Positions 41,978 to 61,458 of a DNA stretch of 64,000 nt are shown in pieces; position 1 is the stretch's first letter; each line of letters begins with the position of its first letter. The notes beneath the pieces were generated by a model. That model made no database searches. It was not told the origin of the DNA and saw nothing but the letters and a program-made list of their open reading frames with translations. This stretch comes from Brucella thiophenivorans (GTDB taxonomy: Bacteria; Pseudomonadota; Alphaproteobacteria; Rhizobiales; Rhizobiaceae). Made by a program: the position numbers and the translations under genes. The stretch covers positions 1-64,000 of the forward strand of contig NZ_NNRJ01000052.1 in the NCBI RefSeq assembly GCF_002252445.1, written 5' to 3'.

Positions 41978-42109
41978 TAGTCATTATCGTTTGTCAACAT
42001 ATTTCGCTTAACACCCGGAAAAACCCCGCAAATACGCGTTTTTAAACAGGTTTTTTGAAGGCACTTGTGGCGCTGCAACAAATGGCAGATCGCGCCAACA
42101 AATCATATT

Positions 42110-42123
42110 TTGACATTTGTTAA
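42110..42123. promoter_or_regulatory. Candidate SorC-regulator operator (distal)
   Basis: TTGACATTTGTTAA, one mismatch from a perfect palindrome and closely matching the other two sites, 146 bp upstream of the proximal one (about 14 turns), so looping is possible. Confidence 0.5.
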
Positions 42124-42244
42124 ATATTAATCGAATACTTTCAGAAATTGCAAACCGTAATTTATTGCTGCTCAAATTCAGGGCAAAATAGTGCGCGCGC
42201 AGTTTCGTGCGCGATAAAAATTTCGTTTGTATAATGAAGGGTGG

Positions 42245-42994: not shown

Positions 42995-43049
42995 GCCAAA
43001 AAATCACAAATAAAACGATCATCCGCAATGTGGATAAATCGGTACCTGA

Positions 43050-43066
43050 CTTCGGCTATACCGAAG
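43050..43066. promoter_or_regulatory. Candidate LysR-type binding palindrome
   Basis: CTTCGG-N5-CCGAAG lies 26 bp before the LysR start and 56 bp from the divergent tauE-type start, a usual place for a LysR recognition site. Confidence 0.4.
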
Positions 43067-43091
43067 GCTGATTGTTGTGTAATCTTCGCAA

Positions 43092-43976: not shown

Positions 43977-44016
43977 TTGTCATCAAGAGCGGCGGAAACT
44001 CTGGAACACTTCTGAT

Positions 44017-45621: not shown

Positions 45622-45773
45622 GAAATTCGCTCCACGAATTTTATTATAGCGCCTAGATAAAAGCTGTCTTTGGCTTCCAGATTTATTGGCCCTAGCCTCC
45701 GTGTGTGAGTTCTGCCGCATTCAGAGCGCCGACTTTCAACAAGGACGCTCTGCCTTTCTTGGGAGGAGGGGTC

Positions 45774-46772
45774 ATGACTAAATTATTCACGCCTTATATC
45801 AATCGTCGCCACCTGTTAGTCGCCATGGGGGCAAGTGCATTTGCTTCAAGTTTCGACGCACTTGCACCCTCATCGGCTTTCGCTAAAGCTGAGAAACTTG
45901 GCACGACCATTCCAGGCTGGTACCGCTTCAATATCGGCGATATTGAAGCCTCAATCATTTCGGATGGTTTGCTTGATCTGGGGTCAGCAACTGACCAGTT
46001 TCCGGCTGCACCCGCCGACGAAATCACTGAGATTATGAAAAGTGAATTTCTACCGGTAAAGCCTATGATGCTGGAACAAAATTGTCTCGTCATCAATACG
46101 GGCGACAGGCTTGTCTTGTTCGACAGTGGTATGGGAGCGGACAAGCTCTTCGGGCCGGAATCGGGTCGGATGCTTAAAAATCTGGCGGCTGCTGGCATAA
46201 ATCCCGCAGATATTGATGATATTGTTTTAACACATGCGCATTGCGACCATTGCTGGGGCATGGTGGCAGAAGATGGCAACTTGAATTTTCCAAATGCACA
46301 AGTGCATATTTCTGAGGCTGATTTCGATTTCTGGACAGATGAAGAAAAGCTAAAAGCGGATGGCTTTGTGCCGAAGTTTGTAGCAGGTGCGCGCAAAAAC
46401 CTTTTGCCATATCGTGACCGCATGCATTTCGTAAAAAACGATAAGGAAGTGTTGCCGGGCGTAACAGCATTGACAACGCCGGGGCATACGGTGGGGCATA
46501 CATCCTACGTAATCTCGTCAGGCGATAAAACCTTCCTCAATGTCGGCGATGTTGTGCATCACTACGCTTTGCTGTTTCAGAATCCACAATGGGAATTTGC
46601 GTTCGACAGCGATCCCAAAGTAGCAGCACAGACCCGAATGAAGCTTTTCGACATGGCGTCCACGGATGAAATGCCGATGATCGGCTATCACTTTCCGTTC
46701 CCTGGCCTTGGTCACATCCGGCGCGAGGGCGATGCCTTTGACTATGTACCGATCCCGATTAAGCACGCCTGA
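45774..46772 (+). CDS. Tat-exported MBL-fold hydrolase, methyl parathion hydrolase-like
   Basis: 332 residues. The N-terminus contains a twin-arginine signal (INRRHLLVAMGASAFA) with an Ala-rich cleavage region. Metal ligands of the metallo-beta-lactamase fold are intact: LTHAHCDHCWG, TTPGHTVGHTSYV, NVGDVVHH and the late YHFPFPGLGHIRREG. The order of motifs, the ADFDFW-type helix and the ending FDYVPIPI match methyl parathion hydrolase and related lactonases, though the core is HAHCDH rather than HMHPDH. It should act in the periplasm on a lactone, ester or organophosphate. A GGGAGGAGG lies just before ATG 45774; the frame extends upstream to 45705. Confidence 0.85.
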   Translation: MTKLFTPYINRRHLLVAMGASAFASSFDALAPSSAFAKAEKLGTTIPGWYRFNIGDIEASIISDGLLDLGSATDQFPAAPADEITEIMKSEFLPVKPMMLEQNCLVINTGDRLVLFDSGMGADKLFGPESGRMLKNLAAAGINPADIDDIVLTHAHCDHCWGMVAEDGNLNFPNAQVHISEADFDFWTDEEKLKADGFVPKFVAGARKNLLPYRDRMHFVKNDKEVLPGVTALTTPGHTVGHTSYVISSGDKTFLNVGDVVHHYALLFQNPQWEFAFDSDPKVAAQTRMKLFDMASTDEMPMIGYHFPFPGLGHIRREGDAFDYVPIPIKHA

Positions 46773-46812: not shown

Positions 46813-47661
46813 TCAATCATCAGACGTTTGAGCCTGCATGGTCATAGCACCATCAGCGTTCAAAACCCAGAACCTGTTGCCGCTGTCCTCGCGTTTGGCG
46901 TTAATCGTAAAGGATGAACCATCAAACAACGGCGACAGGCCCCGGAAGCTGAAGCGCTTTGGCAAACGATTATCATTTAACTGATACGCCATACGCAGCA
47001 TGTAATTTGCTTGAAGCGGGCCATGCACGATCAGGCCTGGGTAAAACTCTTCATCAATGCAATAATCACGATCATAATGAATTCTGTGACCATTAAAGGT
47101 CACCGCCGAATAACGCATAAGCAACGTCGGCGTTCCATCGATTTCAAGCATCATATCCGGTTCGACAAAGTCCGCCTTGGGCGGCTTATTATCACTCGGC
47201 GCTTCCAGCGCACGATAGACAATATCATGACGTTCATTGAGTATGACATTACCATCGACAGAATATTCGTGATGAACAGTGACGAAGCACAGCGTTCCGC
47301 TGCGCCCCGCTTTGACGGCAATATCATCAACCCGTGAAAGGCGACGAACACTATCCCCGACCCGAAAACCGCTGGAGAAACAGAGTTCTCCGCCCGCCCA
47401 CATTCTGCGGGGTAGCTGCACCGGCGGCAGGAATGCACCGCGGGCAGGATGACCATCTGCACCAAGGCCAGACATCGGCACAATGTCTGGAGACAGGCAC
47501 CAGTGGATACCAACCGGCGCAAGATCGCCTGCCTTCAGGTCGCATGGTTCATCGAGAACCGCGGCCAATCCGTTTGCAAGGCGTGGCGTGATGATATCGA
47601 AAGTTTCACGCTCGGAACCCAGCCATTTTTTCAGATGTTCGACATCGATTTTCTCAGACAT
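46813..47661 (-). CDS. ich: Itaconyl-CoA/mesaconyl-CoA hydratase (MaoC/FAS1-like dehydratase)
   Basis: About 282 residues. A double hot-dog protein. The N-terminal half carries GIHWCLSPDIVPMSGLGADGHP then GAFLPPVQLPRRMWAGG and SRVDDIAVKAGRSGTLCFVTVHHEY, closely recalling Ich of the Pseudomonas/Yersinia itaconate pathway and mesaconyl-C4-CoA hydratase. The C-terminal half has HRIHYDRDYC and GLIVHGPLQANYM with the hydratase His residues. It hydrates itaconyl-CoA to citramalyl-CoA. TTG 47673 is an alternative start; ATG 47661 (MSEKIDVEHL) is preferred. Last gene of the leftward operon, 8 bp after the dehydrogenase stop. Confidence 0.8.
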   Translation of the reverse strand: MSEKIDVEHLKKWLGSERETFDIITPRLANGLAAVLDEPCDLKAGDLAPVGIHWCLSPDIVPMSGLGADGHPARGAFLPPVQLPRRMWAGGELCFSSGFRVGDSVRRLSRVDDIAVKAGRSGTLCFVTVHHEYSVDGNVILNERHDIVYRALEAPSDNKPPKADFVEPDMMLEIDGTPTLLMRYSAVTFNGHRIHYDRDYCIDEEFYPGLIVHGPLQANYMLRMAYQLNDNRLPKRFSFRGLSPLFDGSSFTINAKREDSGNRFWVLNADGAMTMQAQTSDD

Positions 47662-47669
47662 GACAAATC

Positions 47670-48839
47670 TCAATATGAGCGGGGAAGACCGAGAACGTGT
47701 TCGGCGACATAGCTGAAGATGAGGTTGGTGGATATTGGCGCAACCTGATACAAGCGGGTTTCACGGAATTTGCGTTCAACATCGTATTCGCTGGCAAAAC
47801 CAAAGCCGCCGTGAAATTGGATGCAGGCATTGGCGGCTTCCCATGAAGCCTGAGCCGCGAGATATTTTGCCATGTTGGCCTCTGCACCACAGGGTCTTCC
47901 GGCATCGTACAATCGGCAGGCCTGATAGCGCATCAAATTAGCGGCTTCAATCTCGATATGCGCCTGTGCAATCGGGAATTGGACGCCTTGATTTTGACCT
48001 ATGGGACGACCGAAAACGATGCGCTCCTTGGTATATTCAACCACTTTGTCGATAAACCAATAACCGTCACCAATACATTCTGCTGCAATCAATGCGCGTT
48101 CGGCATTGAGGCCGGTCAGGATATATTTAAACCCCTGGCCTTCCTCCCCGATCAGATTTTCAGCAGGGATTTCAAGATCATCGAAAAATAGCTCATTGGT
48201 CTCATGATTGACCATATTGCGTATGGGGCGCACCTCCATACCCTGCTTGATGGCATCTTTAATATCGACGAGGAAAATGGATAGACCTTCAGACTTCTTT
48301 TTCACCTGATCGAGCGGTGTCGTGCGCGCAAGAAGAACCATGAGATCAGAATGCTGGATACGCGAAATCCAGACTTTTTGACCATTTATGACGTAGCGGT
48401 CGCCCTTTTTGATAGCGGTCGTTTTAATACGTGTCGTATCCGTGCCGGTTGTTGGCTCGGTCACGCCCATGGATTGAAGACGCAATTCGCCGGAAGCAAT
48501 TTTTGGCAAATAATGTCGCCGCTGCTCTTCGGAACCATGCCGGACCAGCGTATTCATATTATACATCTGTCCGTGACATGCGCCCGAATTACCGCCCGCA
48601 CGATTGATTTCCTCCATGATGACAGAGGCCTCGGTTAGACCAAGACCTGCTCCACCATATTCTTCCGGGATCAGTGCTGCCATCCAGCCTTCGCGCGTCA
48701 AAGCTGCCACAAATTCATCAGGATAGGCACGCTCTTCATCGATGCGGCGATGATACTCAGCCGGAAAGCTTTGGCAAAGGGTCCTGATACCGTCGCGAAT
48801 ATCGGCAAAGGCTTCATTTGGATTCAGAAAATCATTCAC
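47670..48839 (-). CDS. Acyl-CoA dehydrogenase of the itaconate/mesaconate locus
   Basis: 389 residues. FAD- and substrate-binding signatures are clear: the MGVTEPTTGTDTTRIKTTA segment, the NGQKVWISRIQHSD segment, the helix KYILTGLNAERALIAAECIGD, the stretch ANACIQFHGGFGFASEYDVER, and the C-terminal LGLPRSY. It is the same position as PA0879 in the P. aeruginosa itaconate cluster. A likely role is oxidation of methylsuccinyl-CoA to mesaconyl- or itaconyl-CoA, feeding saturated C5 acids into the path; unproven. Start GTG 48839 has GGAG eight bases before it. Confidence 0.82.
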   Translation of the reverse strand: MNDFLNPNEAFADIRDGIRTLCQSFPAEYHRRIDEERAYPDEFVAALTREGWMAALIPEEYGGAGLGLTEASVIMEEINRAGGNSGACHGQMYNMNTLVRHGSEEQRRHYLPKIASGELRLQSMGVTEPTTGTDTTRIKTTAIKKGDRYVINGQKVWISRIQHSDLMVLLARTTPLDQVKKKSEGLSIFLVDIKDAIKQGMEVRPIRNMVNHETNELFFDDLEIPAENLIGEEGQGFKYILTGLNAERALIAAECIGDGYWFIDKVVEYTKERIVFGRPIGQNQGVQFPIAQAHIEIEAANLMRYQACRLYDAGRPCGAEANMAKYLAAQASWEAANACIQFHGGFGFASEYDVERKFRETRLYQVAPISTNLIFSYVAEHVLGLPRSY

Positions 48840-48907
48840 TGGTCATACTCCGGAAGAGCGAGCGGCACGAGATTGACTTCACTGATCTCGCGCTTCGATA
48901 AAATTAC

Positions 48908-50269
48908 TCAGGACAAAAGCGTGCGAATATCCGCAGTTGAAGGCAGGTTTTGCAGCTTGCTGAAAAGCACATCGGCGTCGGCATTTAATACCGGGCCAGC
49001 AAGTGTGCTGAACTTTGCCGCCAGTGCCTTAGGCGAAGGAAACGTTTCGGGTTCGCCAGAGGGGTCAGCAATACGCAGGCGATGCGTTTTGCCATCCACG
49101 GTGACGTCAAGCGTTGCACCAAAAGGATGCTTGAGCCCTTCCAGCCGTTCATCATGTACGACATCCACCCGATCGCTCAGCGCATCAACTTGCGGATCGC
49201 CCAACAGATCGTAATCGTCCCAGCCAAATTCCCCGCGCAGCAATGCGACCGCTGCCGCAAACGGCATGGAAAACTGACCTTCGACGATCGTACGGGATCG
49301 GCGTTTCTTATCGAGTGGCGCACCGACCAGCGTGATACCGTTTATATGCAGCCCGACGGTAATACTTTCGATGTCATCTGCCTTGAATTGATGCTCACGC
49401 TTGAGTGCAAGAAGGCCATCGACAGCAGCGTGGGTGTAACGACAAGCCGGATAAGGCTTGACGCCGATATTCATGGTTTCCCAGACAGAACCGAGCCCGG
49501 TAATTACAAGGGCAGGATCGGCATTGTCGCTATAGCCTTTCAGGAAACCATGCTTGCCATCGATAACATCAATCGCACCGACAAAACCCTCGGATGCGAG
49601 TGTCGCTGCCATCAGCCCTTTCATCGCCGTCTCGCCAACCTGATAGCGCTTGTTCCATGCTCCATTGATCAAAAACTGCAGTGAGCCCGATGCCTGACTA
49701 CCAGCAACGCCGAAAGCGCTCACCATGGCATCTGTATCAAGACCGAAAATTCGCCCGGCTGCAGCGGCGGCACCAAACGTACCGGCAGTAGCAGTGGGGT
49801 GAAAACCGCGTGCATAATGCGCGCCTGGATCCAGTGCCATTCCAAGCCGGCAACAAACTTCAAAGCCAACAACAATCGCTGCAAGAAGATCGTCGCCCGA
49901 CGCACCAGTCATTTCGGCTGCCGCAAAGGCTGCGGGAACAACCGGTGCACTGGGATGCAAGGAACTGTCGGCATGTGTGTCGTCAAAATCAAGAGAATGC
50001 CCGAATGCACCGTTTAAAAGGGCAGCAGCAGCGGGTGGATAGCGACGATTAAGCCCGAATACGGTGCACTCGCCATCCCCATCCATTCCCATCCGTCTTA
50101 GCATTGCCAGAATGGATGCTGTGGAATCGGCTTCATGTGCGGCGCGTATGCCAGATCCAATCAGATCCGTTGCAAGTGCAAGCGCACGTTGTTTGACCTC
50201 TTGAGGAATTTTGGCAGAAGAAGTGTCGGTTGCGAAATGAGCCAGAGTGTTTGTGACGGACATCGTCAT
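48908..50269 (-). CDS. MmgE/PrpD-family protein
   Basis: 453 residues. Helical domain 1 has FDDTHADSSLHPSAPVVPAAF, the strongest MmgE/PrpD motif, and GFHPTATAGTFGAAAAAGRIFGLD; the small domain 2 includes KPYPACRYTHAAVDGLL. Family members include 2-methylcitrate dehydratase, cis-aconitate decarboxylase (the itaconate-forming enzyme) and imino-disuccinate epimerase. Within an itaconate cluster its job is unknown; a P. aeruginosa homologue sits at the same place. The start ATG overlaps the stop of the lyase gene by one base (TGATG). Confidence 0.82.
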   Translation of the reverse strand: MTMSVTNTLAHFATDTSSAKIPQEVKQRALALATDLIGSGIRAAHEADSTASILAMLRRMGMDGDGECTVFGLNRRYPPAAAALLNGAFGHSLDFDDTHADSSLHPSAPVVPAAFAAAEMTGASGDDLLAAIVVGFEVCCRLGMALDPGAHYARGFHPTATAGTFGAAAAAGRIFGLDTDAMVSAFGVAGSQASGSLQFLINGAWNKRYQVGETAMKGLMAATLASEGFVGAIDVIDGKHGFLKGYSDNADPALVITGLGSVWETMNIGVKPYPACRYTHAAVDGLLALKREHQFKADDIESITVGLHINGITLVGAPLDKKRRSRTIVEGQFSMPFAAAVALLRGEFGWDDYDLLGDPQVDALSDRVDVVHDERLEGLKHPFGATLDVTVDGKTHRLRIADPSGEPETFPSPKALAAKFSTLAGPVLNADADVLFSKLQNLPSTADIRTLLS

Positions 50270-51096
50270 CAGCCTTCAGTCTTGAATTCAGTACCAGCAC
50301 GCAGGCAAATCTGACGGGCACGCAATATGACGGGCGCATCAACCATGGCACCATCAACACGAAGTGCAGCATCGCCGCTTTGAGCAGCGTCTAAAACGCG
50401 GCAAGCCCAATCGAGTTCTTTTTGTGACGGCTTAAAGCCCTCGCGCGCTAAAACGATCTGGGCAGGGTGAATAAGCAGCTTGCCGCCAAAACCAAGCTCC
50501 ACGGAATGAGCGCAATCATTAAGAAGTATATCTTCGGCGTTGATTGCCGTTGTCACACCATCCAGCGGTGCCGGAATATTCGCAAGCCGAGAAGCCAATA
50601 CGATTTCGCTGCGTGCATTCAGAAGCGACAGCTGCGTATGCCCCATCGCAAGATCAGCGGCATAGTCAATGGAGCCAAATGCGAGACGCGCAGAAGTTTT
50701 TGCAATTTTGCGAGCGTTCTCAAGCCCTTTGGCACTCTCGATCAGGGCAATGACAGGATGTTCGCATCGGGCTGCAACGCACTTGATATTGTCATCGCTT
50801 TCAGACTTCGGCAACATAACGGCAGCAAGTGGCAGTTGCTTGACGATGCGCAGATCATCGTAATGCCATGCCGTACCGATCGCGTTAATCCGCACAATCA
50901 GAGGCAAAGCGGATGATAATTCTGCGAGTACTCTAGCAAGTCCCTGACGGGCTGCGGCTTTATTGTCCGGTGCGACAGCATCCTCAAGATCGAAAATGAC
51001 TGCATCAGGGCGAGCATTTATAGCCTTTGCAAAACGTTCAGGCCTATCTGCCGGAACAAAAAGCGGGAGCGATATTTTGTCTATCATCGTGTGCAT
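50269..51096 (-). CDS. ccl: (S)-citramalyl-CoA lyase-type CitE protein (HpcH/HpaI family)
   Basis: About 275 residues. The family start ISLPLFVPADRPERFAKAI, the metal/carboxylate site AVIFDLEDAVAPDNKAAAR, the catalytic LIESAKGLENARKIA, and LLIHPAQIVLAREGF are all visible. It would cleave citramalyl-CoA to pyruvate and acetyl-CoA, the last step of itaconate use. The frame extends to 51234, but ATG 51096 (or 51087) gives the family N-terminus. Divergent from the CoA-transferase gene. Confidence 0.82.
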   Translation of the reverse strand: MHTMIDKISLPLFVPADRPERFAKAINARPDAVIFDLEDAVAPDNKAAARQGLARVLAELSSALPLIVRINAIGTAWHYDDLRIVKQLPLAAVMLPKSESDDNIKCVAARCEHPVIALIESAKGLENARKIAKTSARLAFGSIDYAADLAMGHTQLSLLNARSEIVLASRLANIPAPLDGVTTAINAEDILLNDCAHSVELGFGGKLLIHPAQIVLAREGFKPSQKELDWACRVLDAAQSGDAALRVDGAMVDAPVILRARQICLRAGTEFKTEG

Positions 51097-51318
51097 AGAT
51101 ACTGATCCGATCAATTCTCGAAAAAGCATGGGCGACGATGTGCTATATTGGAAATATATTTTTAATCGGGTCTGTATAGCGAAACGTGATAGTTCACCCC
51201 AATCATCCGCATTCGAATTTATATGGCGCGCCATAAGGCATTATAACATTGCGATATAACCGATGGAGGAAGCTGTTATTTGAAGTGATAGCTTATTTGG
51301 CCAATTCTAGAGCAACAT

Positions 51319-51337
51319 GAAGCTCTCCCTGAGCTTC
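51319..51337. other. Short hairpin in the ccl-ict intergenic region
   Basis: Perfect 7-bp arms GAAGCTC (51319-51325) and GAGCTTC (51331-51337), 5-base loop, 34 bp before the CoA-transferase start. It may be a leader hairpin or binding site. Confidence 0.35.
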
Positions 51338-51371
51338 GCTTTAAAAAGTTTAAGAAGCCAAGGTTTGCTCA

Positions 51372-52511
51372 ATGAAATCCAACGATCTGGAAGGCCTCCT
51401 TGTCGTATCCGTAGAACAGGCAGTTGCTGCGCCTTATGTGTCATCCCGTCTTGCAGAAGCAGGCGCACGCGTTATCAAAATTGAACGCCCTGAAGGCGAT
51501 TTTGCCCGCGGCTATGACGCTCTCGTTCACGGTGAAAGCGCTTACTTTGTCTGGCTCAATCGTGGCAAAGAGTCGGTTTGTCTGGATCTTCGCGAAGAGC
51601 AGGCACGCACCACACTTTCAAACATCATCACCAAGGCTGATGTGTTTATTCAGAATCTCGCGCCCGGCGCCATTGATCGACTTGGCTTTGCGCCAGACAA
51701 ACTGCGCAAAGAGAATCCACAGCTCATAACAGTGTCTATATCGGGCTATGGAGACGAAGGGCCTTTCCAATATTTGAAAGCTTATGATCTTCTCGTTCAG
51801 GCAGAAAGCGGGCTTTCATCTATAACCGGCACGCCGGAAGGCATGACGCGGGTGGGCGTATCTGTCTGTGACATTGCGGCAGGAATGACCGCCTATCAGG
51901 CCGTTCTGCAAGCTCTGATCGCTCGTGGAAAAACCGGACAAGGACGGCATCTTTCCATATCGCTTTTCCACGCTCTCGCCGACTGGATGAACGTACCTTA
52001 TCTTCAGTATACGTATGGTGGAAAAACACTGGGGCGTAATGGCCTGACGCATCCGACAATTGCACCTTACGGCGCTTATGCAGGCAGTGACGACAAGGAA
52101 GTTTTATTCTCGATTCAGAATGAGCGGGAATGGCATCAGTTTTGTGCTGAAGTTCTCAATCAGGCTGAGCTGGCTAAAGACCCGCGTTTTGATAATAATT
52201 CAAATCGGGTTGCCAATCGGGTATCGTTGAACGACATCATCAATGCAGTCTTCAAAACACTCACACGCGATCAGCTTGTTGAGCGTTTAAAAATCGCCAA
52301 CATCGCCTTTGGGCGTGTGTCGACGATGGAGGATCTGTCTGAACATCCTCAAAACCGTTATATCGAAGTAGAAACACCGACCGGCCCCGTGCGTATGCTT
52401 GCCACAGGCATTCTTACAGACGGCGAAGATATTCAACCCGGACCTGTACCCGCACTGGGGCAGCATACCGGATCAATATTGGCAGAGTTTAGCAAAACTT
52501 GTCCTGCCTGA
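51372..52511 (+). CDS. ict: CaiB/BaiF (class III) CoA-transferase, itaconate CoA-transferase candidate
   Basis: 379 residues. The catalytic Asp is D139 in the segment AYDLLVQAESGLSSITG. ARVIKIERPEGDFAR and VFIQNLAPGAIDRLGF are conserved family blocks. In the itaconate pathway this enzyme moves CoA from succinyl-CoA to itaconate. The rest of the locus (hydratase, lyase, LysR) supports that substrate; mesaconate or citramalate are alternatives. AAGG lies eight bases before ATG 51372. Transcribed away from the other pathway genes, with the methyltransferase 15 bp downstream. Confidence 0.82.
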   Translation: MKSNDLEGLLVVSVEQAVAAPYVSSRLAEAGARVIKIERPEGDFARGYDALVHGESAYFVWLNRGKESVCLDLREEQARTTLSNIITKADVFIQNLAPGAIDRLGFAPDKLRKENPQLITVSISGYGDEGPFQYLKAYDLLVQAESGLSSITGTPEGMTRVGVSVCDIAAGMTAYQAVLQALIARGKTGQGRHLSISLFHALADWMNVPYLQYTYGGKTLGRNGLTHPTIAPYGAYAGSDDKEVLFSIQNEREWHQFCAEVLNQAELAKDPRFDNNSNRVANRVSLNDIINAVFKTLTRDQLVERLKIANIAFGRVSTMEDLSEHPQNRYIEVETPTGPVRMLATGILTDGEDIQPGPVPALGQHTGSILAEFSKTCPA

Positions 52512-52526
52512 ACGAAGGAACAATCT

Positions 52527-53255
52527 ATGTCCCTTGATCGTCCGCATAAGAACTCATCAATCGCCCGTGCACGTGCGGTCAAGGCTGACACATTCAGCAT
52601 TATTGCCAATGCTTTACACAAAGTGCAGGCCAGACAAATTGTTGATTTTGGCTGCGGTTATGGCGAGATGGCCGCAAGGCTCGCGGCTGATGGCTTTGAC
52701 GTGACAGGCGTTGATCCATCAGCTGAATCGATTGAGCAAGCTCGCAAGTCACACCAACATTTAAGCTTTATTGAAGGAACGGCTGAACAACCTCCTCTTG
52801 AAGTAGGGAGTTTCGACGCCGCATATTTCCTCAATTCTCTACATCATGTGCCGCCCGCCGATATGCAACAGGCTGTTATGGCAGCCGCCACTATTGTGCG
52901 TCCTGGCGGTTTGGTTCTGGTCATCGAACCACTGGCTGCTGGAAGCTTTTTTCGTGCCATGCGACCCGTCGAAGACGAAAGCGAAATCAGGGCACTTGCC
53001 GCACATGCCGTCGATATGCTGATTGGCGATGGAACGCTAAAGCTGGTTGATCTACAACGCTGGGATCGCGAGAGTAAATTTCAATCTCTGGAAGACTTTA
53101 CAGATTATCTCCTGCGTGTTGATCCACAACGCTCTGAATCTATTCATAAAAACAGTGTTCAGCTGGCGAAGGCGTGGCGGGAGAATGTGACCATTCGCGA
53201 AAACAGCGCATCTCTGTCTCAGCCCTTGGTTTGCTGGATTCTCACGCGTCGATAA
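52527..53255 (+). CDS. Class I SAM-dependent methyltransferase
   Basis: 242 residues. Motif I is VDFGCGYGEMAARLAADGF with the acidic residue in GVDPSAES; motif post-I and II follow (FDAAYFLNSLHHVPPADM, then IVRPGGLVLVIEPLA). It is 15 bp downstream of the CoA-transferase, so co-expressed. It is not part of the known itaconate gene set. A trans-aconitate-type carboxyl methyltransferase acting on C5/C6 dicarboxylates is one idea, but nothing in the sequence proves the substrate. Confidence 0.75.
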   Translation: MSLDRPHKNSSIARARAVKADTFSIIANALHKVQARQIVDFGCGYGEMAARLAADGFDVTGVDPSAESIEQARKSHQHLSFIEGTAEQPPLEVGSFDAAYFLNSLHHVPPADMQQAVMAAATIVRPGGLVLVIEPLAAGSFFRAMRPVEDESEIRALAAHAVDMLIGDGTLKLVDLQRWDRESKFQSLEDFTDYLLRVDPQRSESIHKNSVQLAKAWRENVTIRENSASLSQPLVCWILTRR

Positions 53256-53332
53256 ACATTATATTGCGTTCAATAAATTCAATAGCTATGCTTTTCGCTT
53301 ATAAATGTTAGCCTCTTTCATAAGGTAAAGTG

Positions 53333-54295
53333 ATGGATATTCGACAGCTTCGGTATTTCGTCGCTATTGCCGAGCAAGGCTCATTTTCGCGCGCAGCCAA
53401 TCTATTGCACATCGCTCAGCCCGCCTTGTCGCTGCATGTTCGAAATATGGAATTTGATCTCGGAACGCCGCTGCTTTCCAGAAGCCCGAAGGGCGTTGTT
53501 CCTACCGAAGCCGGTGAAATCCTTCTTAAAAATGCTCGCATCATTCTCGACCAGCTCACAATCGCCGAGGAAGAAATACGCGGGCACGACAATGACCCGA
53601 GCGGAGAAGTAAGACTGGGGCTTCCGGGTACGATAAGCCAAATTCTGGCAGTACCGCTCATTCTAGCTGCCCGAATGCGTTACCCGAAAATCAAACTGCG
53701 TATAGCAGAAGCCATGAGTGGCTTTGTTCTGGAATGGATGCGTGATGCGCGGATCGATCTTGCAGTCCTTTATCGCAACGTCGATGATCGCGGCATAGCG
53801 ATGGTGCGCATGCTGGAAGAGGAACTCGTTTTCTTTGGTCCCGCCGAGCCTGTAAAAGATGTGACTGTTCCTGCACCGGGGGAGATTCTGGACTACAAGC
53901 TTATCGCTCAGTTGCCATTGATACTGCCAAGTGAAGCGCATGGCCTGCGCGAGCTTCTGGAACGGCAGGCAATTTCGTTTGATCTGCGGCTCAACACAAT
54001 TATTGATGTCGATTCTTACTCCAATATTAAGGAACTGGTTCGCTCCGGCATCGGCTATTCCATCCTGCCGTTCAATGCCATCGCGCGTGAAGTGGAAGCA
54101 GGAATTCTCACGTGTTGGAAGATTGCTAACCCTCAGATTCAACGTTCCATCTATCTGACGCACTCAATTGAACGGCCGATGACAAATGCCGTTGCGGCCA
54201 TCGAAGCGCTTAGTCGGGAGGTCTTGCGCGATCTGGCTCGAACGGGTCAGTGGGCAGGCGCAACGATCCTTCCTAACAATTCCGATAGCGTTTAA
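53333..54295 (+). CDS. LysR-family regulator of the itaconate locus (candidate)
   Basis: 320 residues. N-terminus MDIRQLRYFVAIAEQGSFSRAANLLHIAQPALSLHVRNME is a standard LysR HTH; the LysR_substrate domain follows. Related LysR genes (RipR, PA0877) flank itaconate operons in other bacteria. It lies 77 bp after the methyltransferase gene in the same direction and 169 bp before the liv operon, so either could be its target. GTG 53330 is one codon upstream of the chosen ATG, which has AAGG eight bases before it. Confidence 0.85.
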   Translation: MDIRQLRYFVAIAEQGSFSRAANLLHIAQPALSLHVRNMEFDLGTPLLSRSPKGVVPTEAGEILLKNARIILDQLTIAEEEIRGHDNDPSGEVRLGLPGTISQILAVPLILAARMRYPKIKLRIAEAMSGFVLEWMRDARIDLAVLYRNVDDRGIAMVRMLEEELVFFGPAEPVKDVTVPAPGEILDYKLIAQLPLILPSEAHGLRELLERQAISFDLRLNTIIDVDSYSNIKELVRSGIGYSILPFNAIAREVEAGILTCWKIANPQIQRSIYLTHSIERPMTNAVAAIEALSREVLRDLARTGQWAGATILPNNSDSV

Positions 54296-54464
54296 AAACT
54301 CCCTTTTATCCAAGGCTTTGCCATATAAACTTTATCGCTTTGGCTTTAGCTAGAACGTTTTTATATGGCGGGAAGCGAATTAATCAATTTGATACGCGCC
54401 CCTCTCCTCATCACAATATGGCTAACCTTCGAGGGATTTGGGATCGGAGGAACTGGGAGGAATT

Positions 54465-55793
54465 ATGGGAACGATGAATCATTTTTTTGGAGCAACGGGT
54501 AAATTGACCTCGGCAGCTCTGATTTTCGCTGCCGCAACCGCACTTTCGACAACCGCATATGCTGCCGAAAAGCCAAAAGAACTTCAGATCGGAATTACCA
54601 CCTATTCGTCAGGTGCACCTTCAGTCTTTGGTGTTCCGGGACGCGAGGCAGCCGTCATGCTTGCCGAGCAGATCAATGCAAAAGGCGGCATCGATGGCGT
54701 GCCAATCAAATTGCACTTCGTCGATGAAGGTGCAGGTCTTGAAACATTGATGACCGAATATCGCCGTCTCGCTGAAGATGTCGGCGTTGATGTGATGTTC
54801 GCCTCCATTTCCTCAGGCGTTTGTAATAAAATAGCGCCCCTTGCAGAAGATCTCGAAGTCGTCAACTTCATGTGGGATTGCGGCACGCAACGCATCCTCG
54901 AAGACGACAAATATAATTATGTGTTCCGTACACAGGCCAATGCAACGCCCGAAGTGCTTGCACCGCTGGCCTATCTGCTCAAGCACAATCCTGATTTCAA
55001 GACTATTGCAGTGGTTAATCAGGACTATGCCTGGGGACGTGATAGCTGGGAAATTTTCTCAACAGCTTTGAAAACCCAACGTCCTGACGTTGAGGTGGTC
55101 GCCGAACTGTTCCCAGCTTTTGGTGCAGCAGACTTCTCGACAGAAGTTTCGCGCCTGCAAGCTCTCAAGCCAGATGTCATTCTGTCCACCTCATGGGGTG
55201 GCGATCTTGATACTTTTGTGCGTCAGGCCAAGCAGCGCGGTCTCTTTGACCAGTCAAAATTTGTTCTGGCGCTGGCAGAATCCTCACTTGAACGTCTTGG
55301 CGACGATCTTCCGGAAGGCGTTATCGTAGCAGCCCGCGGGGACCATTATTTCCTGCATCCGGAAATGCTTGAAGACGAAAAGTTTAAGAAATTCAATGCG
55401 GACTTCAAAGCCAAGACCGGTGCCTATCCAATCTATTCCGTCTATCACATGGCTCAGGCCTTCGCGGCTCTAGAGGCCGTTTATGCAAAGGCCATTGCAG
55501 CCAATGGTGGTGAGTGGCCGGATAAAGATCAGATAGCAGAGGCCATGGTTGGCCTCGAATATAAGGGCTTTGGGCGTCCGCTGGTTATCCGTGAAGATGG
55601 TCAGGCTGTTGAAGCGCAGCTTGTCGGGACGACCGCCAAAGCGGAAGCCTATCCATTCAAGATTATAGATAAAATGGAAATCTACGATGGTGCCGGAATT
55701 ACAGCACCTGTCGGGGAAAACTCGATCGAATGGATTAAGACTTTCCCTGCGGACAAGCTCAAGATCGACGGCACAAGCTACAACCACAAATAA
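54465..55793 (+). CDS. Branched-chain amino-acid-type ABC transporter substrate-binding protein
   Basis: About 442 residues. Signal peptide runs through LTSAALIFAAATALSTTAYAAE. Mature protein is a type I periplasmic-binding fold of the LivJ class (Peripla_BP_6): AEQINAKGGIDGVPIKLHFVDEGAG and VDVMFASISSGVCNKIAPLAE. The Liv class binds many ligands besides amino acids, including amides, urea and aromatic acids. The chosen start ATG 54465 follows GGGAGG; the frame reaches 54438. It begins a seven-gene operon. Confidence 0.88.
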   Translation: MGTMNHFFGATGKLTSAALIFAAATALSTTAYAAEKPKELQIGITTYSSGAPSVFGVPGREAAVMLAEQINAKGGIDGVPIKLHFVDEGAGLETLMTEYRRLAEDVGVDVMFASISSGVCNKIAPLAEDLEVVNFMWDCGTQRILEDDKYNYVFRTQANATPEVLAPLAYLLKHNPDFKTIAVVNQDYAWGRDSWEIFSTALKTQRPDVEVVAELFPAFGAADFSTEVSRLQALKPDVILSTSWGGDLDTFVRQAKQRGLFDQSKFVLALAESSLERLGDDLPEGVIVAARGDHYFLHPEMLEDEKFKKFNADFKAKTGAYPIYSVYHMAQAFAALEAVYAKAIAANGGEWPDKDQIAEAMVGLEYKGFGRPLVIREDGQAVEAQLVGTTAKAEAYPFKIIDKMEIYDGAGITAPVGENSIEWIKTFPADKLKIDGTSYNHK

Positions 55794-55885: not shown

Positions 55886-56791
55886 ATGACTTCTAATTTC
55901 GTCGTTCTGGCATTGCTCGACGGCATTGCCTACGCGTCATTGCTTTTCCTTGTCGCTGTTGGCCTCACACTCATTTTCGGTGTTCTGGGTATTCTCAACA
56001 TAGCGCATGGTAGCCTCTATGCAATTGGCGCGTATGTTGCAGCAACAATGGGTCAATGGCTAGTGAGTAATGGCTATAATCCCTGGCTCACCTACCCCGC
56101 ACTGCTTGCCGCAGCCATTCTTGTCGGCGTTTTGCTCGGCGGTGTGATCGAAAGATTTCTGCTTCAGCGCATTTACAACAAAGAACCCGTTCTCCAGCTT
56201 CTGGTGACGTTTGCGGTGTTCATGATCCTCGAAAATCTGCAGCGCATGATCTGGGGTGTGCAGCCCTATTATATGTCTACGCCGCTGACATTGCTCGGCA
56301 ATGTGTCTTTCCTCGGTATAAATTATACCGTCTATCAGGTACTCTTCCTGCCATTTGCTGCCGTGATTGTGCTGATCTTCCTGCGTTATTTTTTACGCCA
56401 CACCAATACCGGCTCACAAATTCTGGCAGTCACAGAAGATCGTGAAGCCGCAACTGCAATTGGCATCAATGCAACCCGCGTTTATCTGCTGACATTCGTG
56501 CTCGGCGCATGCTTTGCAGCGCTTGGCGGCGCGCTGGCAACGCCCACGACATCTTTGGTCACGGGCATGGGTGCCAATATGATCGTGCTGTCTTTTGCTG
56601 TTGCCGCGACCGCCGGTCTTGGTCAGATCGAGGGTGCTGCAATCTCCGCTTTGATGATTGGTATTGCGCGCGCTTTTGCCGTGCATCTTAGCCCGGAACT
56701 TGAAGTCATTACGCCTTATCTCATCATGGTGCTTGTTCTTCTGGTGAAGCCCAACGGCCTGTTTGGCAAAGAAACCGTGAGGAAAATCTGA
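55886..56791 (+). CDS. livH: Branched-chain-type ABC transporter permease LivH
   Basis: 301 residues, eight or so membrane segments. ALLDGIAYASLLFLVAVGLTLIFGVLGILNIAHGSLYAIGAY is the classic LivH opening, here read in overlapping conserved pieces. The coupling region contains EDREAATAIGINATRVYLL and ALATPTTSLVTGMG. Its stop shares one base with the livM start (TGATG). Confidence 0.9.
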   Translation: MTSNFVVLALLDGIAYASLLFLVAVGLTLIFGVLGILNIAHGSLYAIGAYVAATMGQWLVSNGYNPWLTYPALLAAAILVGVLLGGVIERFLLQRIYNKEPVLQLLVTFAVFMILENLQRMIWGVQPYYMSTPLTLLGNVSFLGINYTVYQVLFLPFAAVIVLIFLRYFLRHTNTGSQILAVTEDREAATAIGINATRVYLLTFVLGACFAALGGALATPTTSLVTGMGANMIVLSFAVAATAGLGQIEGAAISALMIGIARAFAVHLSPELEVITPYLIMVLVLLVKPNGLFGKETVRKI

Positions 56792-57777
56792 TGGATAAGC
56801 GATTTCTAGCCTTTATTGCCGTCATCCTCGCACTTGGAATCCTTCCCTTCGCGATGGACAGTTCGACGACGTTTGTCGCCATGGTCATGGCAAAGAGCCT
56901 GGCAGTGCTTGGAATTCTGATCCTGCTGCGTGCAGATCAGGTTTCATTCGGGCATGCGATGTTTTTCGCAATAGGCGCTTATGCTGCCGCGTTTCTTTCA
57001 ACGAGTTTCCGCGGGATTGACCTCTCGCTTCTGATTTTGGCCGCTCTTGTCGCCTCACTGCTTGCGGGCTTGATCGTTGGCGTTTTTGTTACGCGCTATC
57101 GCGGCATTTTCTTTGGCATGATCAATCTTGCCTTCTCGATGGTTTTTTATTCCATTCTGGAAAAAGCCTTCCACATCACCGGCGGTTCCGATGGCATGCG
57201 TATTCGGCGTCCGACATTCCTTGGAATGGAGTTCAAGCGCGCTGAATTCGATCTGGTGATCTATTTTGTTATCCTCGCTTTGGCGGCGCTCTGTTTCTTT
57301 CTGGTCTGGCGTTACCTTCGCTCTCCGCTGGGACAGGCGCTGCGCGCCATCAAAACCAATGAAACCCGCCTTGAATATCTCGGCCTCTCGGCAAAGGCAG
57401 TTTTGTTAACCGGCTATGTTATCTCTGCCGTATTGTGCGGACTTGGCGGTGTTTTGATGGGTATCGTGCAGGGACTTGCTACGCCCGAACATGCATTCTG
57501 GACCCGCTCATCCGAGTTTGTCTTTATCGCAGTCCTCGGAGGCCCCGGTCACGTTGCAGGTGCATTGAGTGGAACCTTTATCTTCGAGCTTATCCGCACT
57601 TACGCAGCTTCACTGCTCACCGATAGCTGGCAGCTCATTCTAGGCGTAACGCTGATCATCATCATCCTTTGGGCTCCGGGCGGCATCGTTGAACTTTGGA
57701 ACCGCGCTTTCAACCGAAAGCGGGCAAAATCCGAAGGCAGTGTCACAGCAACCACATCTTCAGAGGCAAACCAATGA
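56791..57777 (+). CDS. livM: Branched-chain-type ABC transporter permease LivM
   Basis: 328 residues. GHAMFFAIGAYAAAFLST and the EAA-like loop ALRAIKTNETRLEYLGLSAKAV are typical LivM motifs. The C-terminal tail past the last helix is short and basic. Translationally coupled to livH and, through an ATGA overlap, to livG. Confidence 0.9.
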   Translation: MDKRFLAFIAVILALGILPFAMDSSTTFVAMVMAKSLAVLGILILLRADQVSFGHAMFFAIGAYAAAFLSTSFRGIDLSLLILAALVASLLAGLIVGVFVTRYRGIFFGMINLAFSMVFYSILEKAFHITGGSDGMRIRRPTFLGMEFKRAEFDLVIYFVILALAALCFFLVWRYLRSPLGQALRAIKTNETRLEYLGLSAKAVLLTGYVISAVLCGLGGVLMGIVQGLATPEHAFWTRSSEFVFIAVLGGPGHVAGALSGTFIFELIRTYAASLLTDSWQLILGVTLIIIILWAPGGIVELWNRAFNRKRAKSEGSVTATTSSEANQ

Positions 57778-58532
57778 CAGCTCAGACGACTACGCCGCTG
57801 TTGCTAAGGGCTGAAGGTCTCAAGCTCCGTTTTGGCGGCATCATTGCCGCCGATGGGATCAACCTTTCGCTTTACGAAGGTGAGCATCTGGCAATTATCG
57901 GTCCCAATGGGGCGGGGAAAACCACGTTCCTCAATATCTGCACCGGTTATCTGCGCCCGCAGGCGGGGTCGGTGGTGTTTGAAGGCAAGGAAATTACAGC
58001 GCAAAAGCCGCGTTCGATCACGCGTCTCGGCATCGCACGTGCGTTTCAGATCCCGCAACTCTTTGCCGAACAGACGGTTCTGGAAAACATGCTGCTTGCG
58101 GCCTCGGTTCGCGAACGGCATTGGAACCTTCTCAGATCGCTTTATGCGATCCCTGAGCGCGGCGAAATGGAAGCGCTTCTGGAACTGGTTGGCTGCGCCG
58201 ATATTCGTGACCGTTTGGCCAGCGAGCTGCCGGAAGGCAAGCGTAAGCTTGTGGATATAGCAATCGCACTTGCGCTGAAACCACGCGTGCTCCTCATGGA
58301 TGAGCCGACTTCCGGTGTCGCCTCTGCCGACAAATTTGCGGTGATGGAAACACTCATGAACGCATTGCACAAAGCCAAAGTCAGTTCGGTCTTTGTGGAA
58401 CACGATATGGAAATGGTCTCGCGATACGCAACCCGTGTTGCCGTCTGGGCACAAGGCGTCATCCAGACGACTGGTGACCCTAAAAGCGTACTCAATGATC
58501 CAGAAGTCATTCGCAATGTGATCGGAGGCTGA
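57774..58532 (+). CDS. livG: Branched-chain-type ABC transporter ATP-binding protein LivG
   Basis: 252 residues. Walker A GPNGAGKTTFLN, the Q-loop region ARAFQIPQLFAEQTVLENML, and Walker B RVLLMDEPTSGV are intact. The signature loop reads LPEGKRKLVDIAIALAL instead of LSGGQQRxxEIARAL: a real departure in the ABC signature seen in some Liv ATPases. The H-loop is VEHDMEMV. The frame reaches 57696 inside livM; ATG 57774 is chosen for the ATGA overlap. Confidence 0.88.
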   Translation: MTAQTTTPLLLRAEGLKLRFGGIIAADGINLSLYEGEHLAIIGPNGAGKTTFLNICTGYLRPQAGSVVFEGKEITAQKPRSITRLGIARAFQIPQLFAEQTVLENMLLAASVRERHWNLLRSLYAIPERGEMEALLELVGCADIRDRLASELPEGKRKLVDIAIALALKPRVLLMDEPTSGVASADKFAVMETLMNALHKAKVSSVFVEHDMEMVSRYATRVAVWAQGVIQTTGDPKSVLNDPEVIRNVIGG

Positions 58533-58534: not shown

Positions 58535-59212
58535 ATGCTTGTTTTCAAAAACGTAGACGCCTCAATTGGTAACATTCCCATTCTGCGCAACATCAATTTT
58601 AGTCTTGATGCTGCGGAGTCTGTGGCATTGGTTGGGCGCAATGGCGCCGGCAAAACCACGCTGTTACGCACACTCATGGGCTTTACCCGTTCCACCGGTG
58701 AAATCAGCTTCGAAGGTAATGATCTTTCGAAAGTTGCACCCTATAAGCGGCCATCTTTGGGGATCGGTTATGCGCCGGAAGACCGGCGCTTATTCTCCCG
58801 GTTCACGATCACCGAAAATATTCTGCTTCCGGCGCAAGTGGCACAATTAAGTGCAGCAGAAACCAGGCAGCGGCTGGAACGCATTTATCTCGTCATGCCG
58901 GAACTTGAAACGCTTGGCCCACGGCCTGCAGGTTCCGTGTCTGGCGGTCAGGGTAAAATGGTGGCTCTCGGACGCGCGCTGATGCTGTCTACAAAATTGC
59001 TGCTGCTGGACGAACCGTTTCAAGGGTTGGCACCTGTTCTGGCAAACCGCTACGCCGAGGCACTGGGCAAGCTGCGCGAAATAGACCCCACTCTGGCTAT
59101 CATCATCACTGAATCCAATCCCCATTTGCTGCGTAATTTTGCGTCTCGCACCATCACCGTGGAGCGCGGACAAATCGACAGCGACATTGCATTCGAAAGG
59201 AACGTCGCGTGA
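58535..59212 (+). CDS. livF: Branched-chain-type ABC transporter ATP-binding protein LivF
   Basis: 225 residues. Walker A GRNGAGKTTLLRTLMG, signature VSGGQGKMVALGRAL (with Gly-Lys after the GGQ instead of the usual Gln-Gln), and Walker B LLLLDEPFQGLAPV. The final switch His is replaced in IITESNPHLLRNFA, where the usual EQN/H element has an Asn-Pro-His order. It pairs with LivG. The start is three bases after the livG stop; its end overlaps the aldehyde dehydrogenase start by 4 bp. Confidence 0.85.
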   Translation: MLVFKNVDASIGNIPILRNINFSLDAAESVALVGRNGAGKTTLLRTLMGFTRSTGEISFEGNDLSKVAPYKRPSLGIGYAPEDRRLFSRFTITENILLPAQVAQLSAAETRQRLERIYLVMPELETLGPRPAGSVSGGQGKMVALGRALMLSTKLLLLDEPFQGLAPVLANRYAEALGKLREIDPTLAIIITESNPHLLRNFASRTITVERGQIDSDIAFERNVA

Positions 59213-60693: not shown

Positions 60694-61458
60694 ATGACCA
60701 ATCCTAAGGGGCGACTTGACGGCAAAATAGCGATTGTTACCGGTGCAGGCGGTGGTTTTGGCGAAGGGATTGCCAAGCTTTTCGCCGATGAAGGCGCGAA
60801 AGTTGGTGTGCTAGATCTGCGTGCCGATGCTGCCGAACGCGTAGCGTCAGAAATTGGAGCGAGCGCCATTGCACTCACGGCAGATGTGACATCCCGCGAG
60901 CAAATTGAACAAGCGGTCAATAAAATGGTCGATGCTTTCGGCACGCCTGATGTTTTTGTCAATAATGCAGGCTGGACCCACCGTAACAAGCCGATGCTGG
61001 ACGTAACGGAAGAAGAGTTTGATCGCGTTTACGCTATTAACGTAAAATCGATCTATCATATTTCGAATGTCATCGTACCATTGATGCGCGAAAATGGTGG
61101 AGGCTCGATTGTAAACATCGGCTCCGTTGCGGGTATCAGACCCCGCCCGGGTCTGACCTGGTATAATTCGACCAAGGGCGCGGTCAATATCCTGTCGCAA
61201 TCAATGGCGGTTGAACTTGCGCCGGATAAAATCCGCGTCAATGCGATTTGTCCGGTTATGGGTGAAACGGGGTTGCTGGAATCGTTTATGGGTCAACCGG
61301 ACACGCCGGAAAACAGAGCAAAATTTGTCTCGACAATCCCACTGGGACGCATGTCGCGACCAGATGATATTGCGCGTGCAACCCTTTATCTCTCATCAGA
61401 CGACGCCGCCTTCATCACCGGGGTTCTGCTTCCAGTTGATGGTGGACGCACCGTCTGA
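60694..61458 (+). CDS. Short-chain dehydrogenase/reductase (FabG-like)
   Basis: 254 residues, classical SDR. NAD(P) motif TGAGGGFGEGIAKLF, then NNAGW, Ser of the triad in IVNIGSVAGIRPRPG and the catalytic Tyr-Lys in WYNSTKGAVNILSQS. It interconverts a secondary alcohol and ketone. It is 9 bp after the aldehyde dehydrogenase gene and 49 bp before the zinc alcohol dehydrogenase, all in one operon. Confidence 0.88.
   Translation: MTNPKGRLDGKIAIVTGAGGGFGEGIAKLFADEGAKVGVLDLRADAAERVASEIGASAIALTADVTSREQIEQAVNKMVDAFGTPDVFVNNAGWTHRNKPMLDVTEEEFDRVYAINVKSIYHISNVIVPLMRENGGGSIVNIGSVAGIRPRPGLTWYNSTKGAVNILSQSMAVELAPDKIRVNAICPVMGETGLLESFMGQPDTPENRAKFVSTIPLGRMSRPDDIARATLYLSSDDAAFITGVLLPVDGGRTV

What the first reader, a model, noticed from the sequence alone, without database searches (positions are those of the whole stretch)
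46813..54295. Itaconate degradation (rip-like) locus in a probable Brucella relative
The gene set hydratase, acyl-CoA dehydrogenase, MmgE/PrpD, CitE-type lyase and class III CoA-transferase plus LysR is the same set as in the P. aeruginosa PA0877-PA0883 itaconate cluster. Itaconate is an antimicrobial made by macrophages, so its breakdown matters for organisms related to intracellular pathogens. The order is rearranged: ict is divergent, and a methyltransferase replaces the glyoxalase-like gene.
Basis: partly seen in the sequence, partly recalled or inferred. Interest (0 to 1): 0.7.

Follow-up and report, generated by a model that had tools for sequence, protein, structure and literature searches.

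The report
Branched C5-diacid breakdown gene cluster
A relative of Brucella carries a known kind of gene set for breaking down itaconate and its saturated cousin methylsuccinate, joined to a transporter and alcohol- and aldehyde-oxidising genes that hint at an undescribed source of these acids, rather than an obvious weapon against macrophages.

Summary
The genes are real and in place: ich, acyl-CoA dehydrogenase, MmgE/PrpD, ccl, divergent ict, a methyltransferase and LysR. The genome shares a genus with Ochrobactrum sp. Q0168. The core is a known kind of locus: in print, the five-gene set serves itaconate and methylsuccinate and is likelier in saprophytes (PMC12290011), so the macrophage reading is weak.

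Corrections. (1) MmgE/PrpD is not an orthologue of characterised methylsuccinate isomerase: Asp for Glu, 2-residue spacing shift, 36% identity to a Variovorax protein that fits, separate clade. (2) The methyltransferase is a recurrent partner: 9 of 11 best other places adjoin ich/ict/ccl/mcd homologues. (3) The locus is larger: ABC transporter, ALDH, SDR and ADH follow. All 12 genomes with a close binding-protein orthologue have ich (83 of 296 background); 6 of 12 lie within 10 kb, in two families. A Chelatococcus plasmid adds the MBL hydrolase seen beside ich.

Boldest reading: a lactone, diol or hydroxy-acid is imported and oxidised to methylsuccinate or itaconate, then cleaved to acetyl-CoA and pyruvate. 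Substrate unproven.

The parts
45705..46772 (+). MBL-fold hydrolase with an RR-containing N-terminal signal (read by eye) and HAHCDH motif, lactonase-like; convergent with ich; possible member of the wider locus
   Evidence: Lactamase_B E 8e-21; AidB lactonase model 159.8 bits, below cutoff 360; 50% to the MBL inside the Chelatococcus supercluster; sequence
46813..47673 (-). ich: itaconyl-CoA / mesaconyl-C4-CoA hydratase (an ATG at 47661 may be the start instead of the TTG)
   Evidence: 8khg E 2e-62; 44% identity; YSAxTFNxHRIHYD motif kept in the 12 aligned homologues
47670..48839 (-). mcd: probable (RS)-methylsuccinyl-C4-CoA dehydrogenase
   Evidence: acyl-CoA dehydrogenase domains; 79-81% identity to dehydrogenases beside ich in Cupriavidus, Variovorax and Paraburkholderia
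48908..50269 (-). MmgE/PrpD-family protein, probably an isomerase/epimerase of a C5 diacid, not an orthologue of characterised Msi
   Evidence: MmgE_PrpD domains; IDS-epimerase best solved relative; His91/Asp94/His105/His157/Lys207/Lys271 and Tyr152; separate clade
50269..51234 (-). ccl: citramalyl-CoA lyase; true start probably about 51096
   Evidence: 9nzb/8khl E 1e-46 from residue 56 on; RipC model 156.8 bits, below cutoff 375; start argument
51097..51371 (.). region between ccl and ict with two conserved blocks, presumed divergent promoters
   Evidence: blocks conserved in window, L098, L108, L092; function inferred
51372..52511 (+). ict: itaconate/methylsuccinate CoA-transferase (class III)
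   Evidence: CoA_transf_3 E 1e-101; inside one starred 61-row clade with betaproteobacterial cluster transferases
52527..53255 (+). class I SAM-dependent methyltransferase recurrently linked to ict/ich clusters; substrate unknown
   Evidence: model pLDDT 93.4; Foldseek hits include trans-aconitate methyltransferase 2p35, JHAMT and HvrF among many others
53330..54295 (+). LysR-type regulator, putative regulator of the divergent operons
   Evidence: LysR homologue near ict in many loci
54438..55793 (+). periplasmic binding protein of a LIV/HAAT ABC transporter
   Evidence: Peripla_BP_6 E 3e-53; co-occurrence with ich; model pLDDT 85.6
55886..56791 (+). ABC permease (LivH type)
   Evidence: BPD_transp_2; 62-69% in superclusters
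56791..57777 (+). ABC permease (LivM type)
   Evidence: BPD_transp_2
57774..58532 (+). ABC ATPase (LivG type; ORF open from 57696, start 57774 inferred)
   Evidence: ABC_tran; start
58535..59212 (+). ABC ATPase (LivF type)
   Evidence: ABC_tran
59209..60684 (+). aldehyde dehydrogenase; the ORF as listed overlaps the ATPase gene by 4 bases
   Evidence: Aldedh E 8e-159; Shinella 78%, Chelatococcus 70%
60694..61458 (+). SDR dehydrogenase
   Evidence: 89% in Shinella, 65% in Chelatococcus
61508..62641 (+). Zn alcohol dehydrogenase (nearest model NDMA-dependent type, 319.8 bits, below cutoff 440)
   Evidence: 75% in Shinella; start

Best explanation
A catabolic locus for branched C5 dicarboxylates. 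Ict moves CoA from succinyl-CoA to methylsuccinate or itaconate. The acyl-CoA dehydrogenase turns methylsuccinyl-C4-CoA into mesaconyl-C4-CoA. Ich hydrates mesaconyl- or itaconyl-CoA to (S)-citramalyl-CoA, and Ccl cleaves it to acetyl-CoA and pyruvate. The MmgE/PrpD protein probably interconverts stereoisomers of the diacid, but belongs to a different subfamily from known methylsuccinate isomerase. A LysR regulator is the third gene of the ict operon. The ABC transporter and ALDH-SDR-ADH genes downstream are inferred to import a more reduced C5 precursor and oxidise it to the diacid. Shown: genes, order, homology, recurrence. Inferred: every substrate and every reaction.
For: Family and structure matches. 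Dehydrogenase 79-81% identical to genes beside ich in three betaproteobacteria; this enzyme type is proven in C. necator and P. aeruginosa (PMC12290011), whose own sequences I could not compare. CoA-transferase in one starred clade with betaproteobacterial cluster enzymes. Same order and partners on a Shinella plasmid. Binding-protein orthologues: 12 of 12 genomes have ich against 83 of 296 (hypergeometric 1.3e-7, not corrected for kinship); 6 of 12 within 10 kb, 0 of 8 weaker paralogue places within 15 kb. Larger clusters in L139-L142, L152, L153, ABC genes beside ict-mcd-ich in L075 and L084, and L167.
Against: No activity was tested. Ich outside G012 is only 36-63% identical to its cluster homologues here and Ccl 36-61%, and no NCBIfam equivalog cutoff is reached by the core enzymes. 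MmgE/PrpD misses one of six published Msi residues, and in the f41/f18 superclusters the slot holds yet another subfamily. ALDH, SDR and ADH are common elsewhere: only 5 of 34, 6 of 85 and 5 of 27 other genomes with a match have it within 15 kb of ich. The 12 binding-protein genomes come from six families, four each from f18 and f41, and the 6 near ich from f18 and f41 only, so events are few; in 4 of the 12 (L146, L149-L151) neither ich nor ict is in the stretch.
Confidence: 0.7

Rival explanations
1. Lactone/diol supercluster: an exported MBL-fold hydrolase opens a methyl- or methylene-butyrolactone, the LIV-type ABC transporter imports the hydroxy-acid, ADH/SDR and ALDH oxidise it through a semialdehyde to methylsuccinate or itaconate, and the core genes finish it. 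This would be a methylated counterpart of the Agrobacterium blcABC route from butyrolactone to succinate semialdehyde.
For: Chelatococcus plasmid: MmgE, ich, mcd, LysR, ict, ABC, ALDH, SDR, MBL and ccl in one stretch. S. meliloti plasmid: LIV ABC, ADH, MBL (49% to the window's) and an annotated succinate-semialdehyde dehydrogenase. blcABC chemistry (PMC5924552, passages). The ALDH ORF as listed overlaps the ATPase gene.
Against: In the loci examined only two lineages have a close MBL beside the core genes (window with G012, and Chelatococcus). MBL homologues are common: 53 of 64 genomes at E<=1e-40, and in the 12 binding-protein genomes none of 48% or more is near the binding protein; G135 has a 35% one 9 kb from ich. 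AidB and AttM models score below cutoff. No ligand is known for the binding protein. The other genes of the S. meliloti cluster are only 24-46% identical to the window's.
Confidence: 0.3
2. Itaconate detoxification system that helps survival in macrophages.
For: Core ict/ich/ccl genes would degrade itaconate; itaconate is made by macrophages (PMC12290011). Homologues of ripABC are noted in B. abortus and B. melitensis (PMC8443048, passages). Some plasmid ich homologues are from clinical isolates.
Against: The five-gene form is said to be likelier in saprophytes. ich is found in 9 of 34 other genomes of the genus and in many plasmid-bearing genera such as Shinella, Bosea and Sulfitobacter. The Brucella homologues cited are at three separate loci and of the rip type.
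Confidence: 0.1
3. The MmgE/PrpD gene encodes a different activity, such as a dehydratase or decarboxylase acting on a larger diacid, so that the true substrate is not methylsuccinate.
For: Asp replaces the Msi Glu, as in IDS epimerase; separate clade from the Msi type; a third clade fills the slot in f41/f18 superclusters.
Against: His105 and Tyr152 align with His99 and Tyr145, the two catalytic residues proposed for IDS epimerase. The gene sits beside a methylsuccinyl-CoA dehydrogenase-type gene. Some tree placements are unsure because of long branches.
Confidence: 0.3

Closest known systems
P. aeruginosa PA0878-PA0886 / C. necator E6A55_22580-22600 itaconate and methylsuccinate cluster
   Same: ich, mcd, ict and ccl gene types; an MmgE/PrpD member
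   Different: divergent ict; MmgE/PrpD of another subfamily; a methyltransferase and no glyoxalase-like gene among the ORFs scanned; LIV-type ABC instead of the IctPQM TRAP transporter of P. aeruginosa (PMC12599236 abstract)
Shinella sp. HZN7 pShin-09 cluster (L108)
   Same: identical order lysR-mt-ict / ccl-mmgE-mcd-ich, plus ALDH-SDR-ADH
   Different: no ABC transporter between LysR and ALDH; carried on a conjugative plasmid
Yersinia pestis ripABC
   Same: same overall chemistry for itaconate
   Different: described as convergent, with nonhomologous or distantly homologous enzymes (PMC12290011); lacks the methylsuccinate genes
Agrobacterium blcABC (attKLM) butyrolactone operon
   Same: works like it at most: metallo-lactonase and steps through gamma-hydroxybutyrate to succinic semialdehyde (PMC5924552 passages)
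   Different: AttM lactonase model not met; no CoA pathway; analogy only

Membership tests
P. aeruginosa/C. necator-type itaconate-methylsuccinate cluster | ich homologue of the solved itaconyl-CoA hydratase | tested here: met
   E 2e-62, 44% identity to 8khg; that 8khg is from P. aeruginosa is recalled
P. aeruginosa/C. necator-type itaconate-methylsuccinate cluster | class III CoA-transferase of the Ict clade | tested here: met
   99* clade of 61 rows with betaproteobacterial cluster members; own-genome paralogues L001, L002, L004 outside; PA0882 itself was not available
P. aeruginosa/C. necator-type itaconate-methylsuccinate cluster | methylsuccinyl-C4-CoA dehydrogenase | tested here: met
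   homology only: 79-81% to genes beside ich in three betaproteobacteria; PA0879 and the C. necator enzyme themselves were not available
P. aeruginosa/C. necator-type itaconate-methylsuccinate cluster | citramalyl-CoA lyase homologue adjacent | tested here: met
   9nzb/8khl E 1e-46
P. aeruginosa/C. necator-type itaconate-methylsuccinate cluster | MmgE/PrpD with the His88, Glu91, His102, His152, Lys202, Lys266 pattern of Msi | tested here: not met
   Asp instead of Glu; offsets 3, 14, 66, 116, 180 against 3, 14, 64, 114, 178; Variovorax L159 fits exactly
P. aeruginosa/C. necator-type itaconate-methylsuccinate cluster | growth on itaconate or methylsuccinate | not testable with these tools
   needs bench work
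P. aeruginosa/C. necator-type itaconate-methylsuccinate cluster | linked TRAP transporter IctPQM (P. aeruginosa; no homologue in C. necator) | tested here: not met
   none among the 24 ORFs between 39797 and 63989 scanned with Pfam; an ABC transporter instead
Yersinia rip system | RipC equivalog score | tested here: not met
   156.8 bits against cutoff 375
blcABC lactone operon | AttM-type lactonase | tested here: not met
   AttM model 35.5 bits against 390
blcABC lactone operon | works like it: MBL hydrolase with alcohol- and aldehyde-oxidising enzymes | tested here: inconclusive
   present in the window and in L167/L178; substrates unknown

The most novel reading that the evidence does not exclude
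The window holds one version of a horizontally spread alphaproteobacterial supercluster of about 16-17 genes that turns an exogenous branched C5 lactone, diol or hydroxy-acid (for example a methyl- or methylene-butyrolactone) into methylsuccinate or itaconate and on to acetyl-CoA and pyruvate. It would have its own LIV-type importer, a new MmgE/PrpD isomerase subfamily and a dedicated methyltransferase. It would supply a missing biological origin for methylsuccinate in soils.
Probability: 0.3. Interest if true: 0.6.

Novelty: new variant of a known kind. Interest (0 to 1): 0.42.

Why it matters
PMC12290011 calls methylsuccinate important in soils and says its environmental origin was unclear until itaconate reduction by gut bacteria was found (Discussion part 1). 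A recurrent importer and alcohol/aldehyde-oxidising module joined to the methylsuccinate genes would make a second origin testable. In the loci seen here the MmgE/PrpD slot is filled by at least three subfamilies, so annotating methylsuccinate isomerase by family alone is unsafe; and this gene set in a Brucella relative is weak evidence for a pathogenic trait.

Tried and rejected
Close DNA relatives of the locus on plasmids: none. Plasmid origin of the window's contig: not shown; four RepC-type genes lie on other contigs and none was found on C47, which could still be a fragment of one of those replicons. Macrophage role: not supported (see rivals). Methyltransferase as trans-aconitate methyltransferase: weak only (E 5e-5; Foldseek rank 8, TM 0.60). 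Ligand of the binding protein from structure: the 50 listed matches are 16-23% identical and those with a named ligand bind mostly aromatic acids, urea, amino acids or GABA-type ligands, so none can be named. MBL linkage in the 12 binding-protein genomes: no close one. Literature on a methyltransferase or ABC partner, tulipalin, diols or methyl-butyrolactone: nothing relevant in the lists; that library lacks most subscription journals. P. aeruginosa and C. necator reference proteins were not obtained, so betaproteobacterial plasmid loci stood in. A first ORF-based annotation of relatives was unusable in high-GC loci and was replaced by tblastn.

Limits of the counts: genome searches scored only the best 5 to 9 candidates per genome for the binding protein, ALDH, SDR, ADH and methyltransferase; the named-genome scan kept 80 of at least 594 loci; L095 and L142 are probably the same contig (both 62,952 bases, identical MmgE rows) and were not counted twice. 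The spacings for Msi were worked out by hand, whose printed offsets had been reduced twice by the script.


Full report
What is there. The seven ORFs of the finding are present at the stated coordinates. Pfam and NCBIfam give a FAS1-like/MaoC-type hydratase, an acyl-CoA dehydrogenase, MmgE/PrpD, a CitE-type lyase, a class III CoA-transferase, a class I methyltransferase and a LysR regulator. By sequence, the hydratase's only solved relatives at E<=0.01 are 8khg, named itaconyl-CoA hydratase, and 8huc; identity to 8khg is 114 of 257 aligned residues. The lyase's best solved relatives are 9nzb and 8khl. That these PDB entries come from P. aeruginosa is recalled, not shown by a call.

Which organism. 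The genus member G024 is Ochrobactrum sp. Q0168: the 16,837 bases of L020 lie identical in L099 and the contig lengths agree (taxonomy). The window's genome is in the same genus. In that genus 9 of 34 other genomes have an ich homologue at E<=0.001. One (G012) has a near-copy of the locus, 82-97% per protein for the nine genes on its contig. Two (L099; L100 without an MmgE hit) have ict divergent from the other core genes. Four (L101, L103-L105) have an mcd-ict-ich-ccl layout. In the last two (L106, L107) no full set of close homologues was seen in the stretch fetched. Such patchiness fits repeated gain and loss.

Comparison with the literature. I read parts 1 and 3 of 9 and Discussion part 1 of PMC12290011, plus passages. 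It shows that the five-gene cluster encodes methylsuccinyl-C4-CoA dehydrogenase and (S)-(R)-methylsuccinate isomerase, so the set serves methylsuccinate as well as itaconate. It says the five-gene form is likelier in saprophytes and that Brucella has a three-gene form. PMC9875883 (passages) gives PA0880 as a 2-hydroxyparaconate lactonase and PA0884-0886 as the transporter; PMC12599236 (outline and abstract) names that transporter IctPQM. PMC8443048 (passages) lists rip homologues in Brucella at three separate loci.

Orthology tests. The dehydrogenase is 79-81% identical to the genes beside ich in Cupriavidus sp. EM10, Variovorax and Paraburkholderia, above the 62-68% group of Bradyrhizobium and others. 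The CoA-transferase falls in one starred clade of 61 rows with the betaproteobacterial cluster enzymes, apart from three own-genome paralogues; within it, a sub-clade of 26 rows (support 93, not starred) holds the window and the ABC-linked loci in the tree except L140. The MmgE/PrpD protein does not pass. Published Msi residues are His88, Glu91, His102, His152, Lys202, Lys266. Variovorax L159 keeps Glu and the exact offsets, while the window has Asp94 and a two-residue shift. The tree puts the window with Shinella, Ochrobactrum Q0168, Hoeflea, Aureimonas, Paracoccus and others, separate from the L159 group and from a third group in L095/L142, L141 and L152. Some long branches make deeper joins unsure. 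His105 and Tyr152 align with His99 and Tyr145 of IDS epimerase, the pair proposed there as catalytic, so an isomerase or epimerase remains the best guess.

The methyltransferase. Of 297 order genomes, 17 including the window's own match at E<=1e-20. Of the 11 best places other than the own one (E up to 4e-37), 9 have an ich, ict, ccl or mcd homologue of 40% or more within the fetched flanks; G161 and G329 do not. These 9 come from three families (f41 four, f34 three, f13 two), so they are not nine independent events. Of the 7 weaker places none does. The gene also lies beside ict in Shinella and Xanthobacter L057, beside the MmgE gene in Pseudogemmobacter L064, and near LysR or core genes in L036, L078 and L081. 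Its model is confident (pLDDT 93.4) but structure only places it among small-molecule methyltransferases.

The wider locus. Downstream of LysR, on the same strand, are a binding protein, two LIV permeases, two ATPases, an aldehyde dehydrogenase whose ORF as listed overlaps the last ATPase gene, an SDR and a Zn-ADH. The binding protein has 12 orthologues at E<=1e-150 in the other 296 genomes. All 12 genomes carry ich, against 83 of 296. Six lie 4-10 kb from ich, and two more (L145, L148) have an Ict-type gene in the same stretch; the remaining four (L146, L149-L151) show neither there. Eight weaker paralogue places include none within 15 kb of ich. The 12 come from six families, with f18 and f41 supplying four each, and the six near ich are from f18 and f41 alone, so the P value of 1.3e-7 overstates independence. 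ALDH, SDR and ADH taken alone are not specific: 5 of 34, 6 of 85 and 5 of 27 other genomes have the match within 15 kb of ich. Near-complete superclusters appear in L139, L140, L141, L142, L152 and L153 (L141 without ALDH and methyltransferase hits, L142 without ALDH, ADH, ccl and methyltransferase hits; their MmgE is not of the window's subfamily). ABC genes also adjoin ict-mcd-ich in L075 and L084. On the Chelatococcus sp. CO-6 plasmid an MBL-fold hydrolase 50% identical to the window's 45705-46772 gene sits between SDR and ccl. A Sinorhizobium meliloti plasmid pairs a LIV transporter with an iron-type ADH, an MBL hydrolase (49%) and an annotated succinate-semialdehyde dehydrogenase, and a Salipiger plasmid has a 69-73% MBL beside a LIV transporter, a CoA-transferase, an acyl-CoA dehydrogenase, MmgE/PrpD, ALDH and an SDR (60%), although the other neighbours are only distantly related to the window's.

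Mechanism. Shown: gene content, order, homology and recurrence. Inferred: import of a reduced C5 compound, oxidation to methylsuccinate or itaconate, CoA activation, dehydrogenation, hydration and cleavage. The lactone variant resembles blcABC (PMC5924552 passages) but has only two core-linked examples, and MBL homologues are common (53 of 64 genomes).

Verdict. The core is a known kind of cluster. The variant with a different MmgE/PrpD, a linked methyltransferase and a linked importer plus oxidation genes is the part worth following. I saw no paper on such an extended cluster in the lists, which cover open-licence papers only.

Noticed in passing
window 51097-51371; L098, L108, L092: Two conserved blocks between ccl and ict, around TGGAAATATATTTTT and TTATTTGAAGTGATAGC, perhaps promoter or LysR sites; parts persist in L020 and L047.
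   Followed up: partly
G000:C47:104712-105524 (beyond the window): A second CitE-like lyase, 38% identical to the window's, on the same contig.
   Followed up: no
L168 (Klebsiella plasmid pHNLC3): ALDH (60%) and SDR (65%) of the same type sit with an alcohol dehydrogenase (36%), an AtuA-family protein, DUF4387 and an annotated fumarate hydratase, another hint that this pair feeds a dicarboxylate.
   Followed up: partly
L110 (Bosea sp. F3-2 plasmid): A cluster with mcd, ict, ich and ccl homologues and an MmgE/PrpD gene upstream, with ALDH, TPP enzymes, isocitrate dehydrogenase, pyruvate carboxylase and a TTT binding protein nearby.
   Followed up: no
plasmid listing: 36 Prescottella plasmid records (those listed are P. 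equi) carry a distant ich homologue, annotated on some as mesaconyl-C4 CoA hydratase; seen in the listing only.
   Followed up: no
L017 (Agrobacterium leguminum): The closest named ich homologue in the genome scan (62-63%) has no ict, ccl, mcd or MmgE relative of comparable identity in its 16.8-kb locus.
   Followed up: no
window 39797-44940: Upstream neighbours: sugar-type binding protein, a permease, TauE, a LysR and an alpha/beta hydrolase; no link to the cluster found.
   Followed up: no
G000 contigs C53, C19, C52, C39: Four RepC-type replication genes, so the genome probably has several secondary replicons.
   Followed up: no
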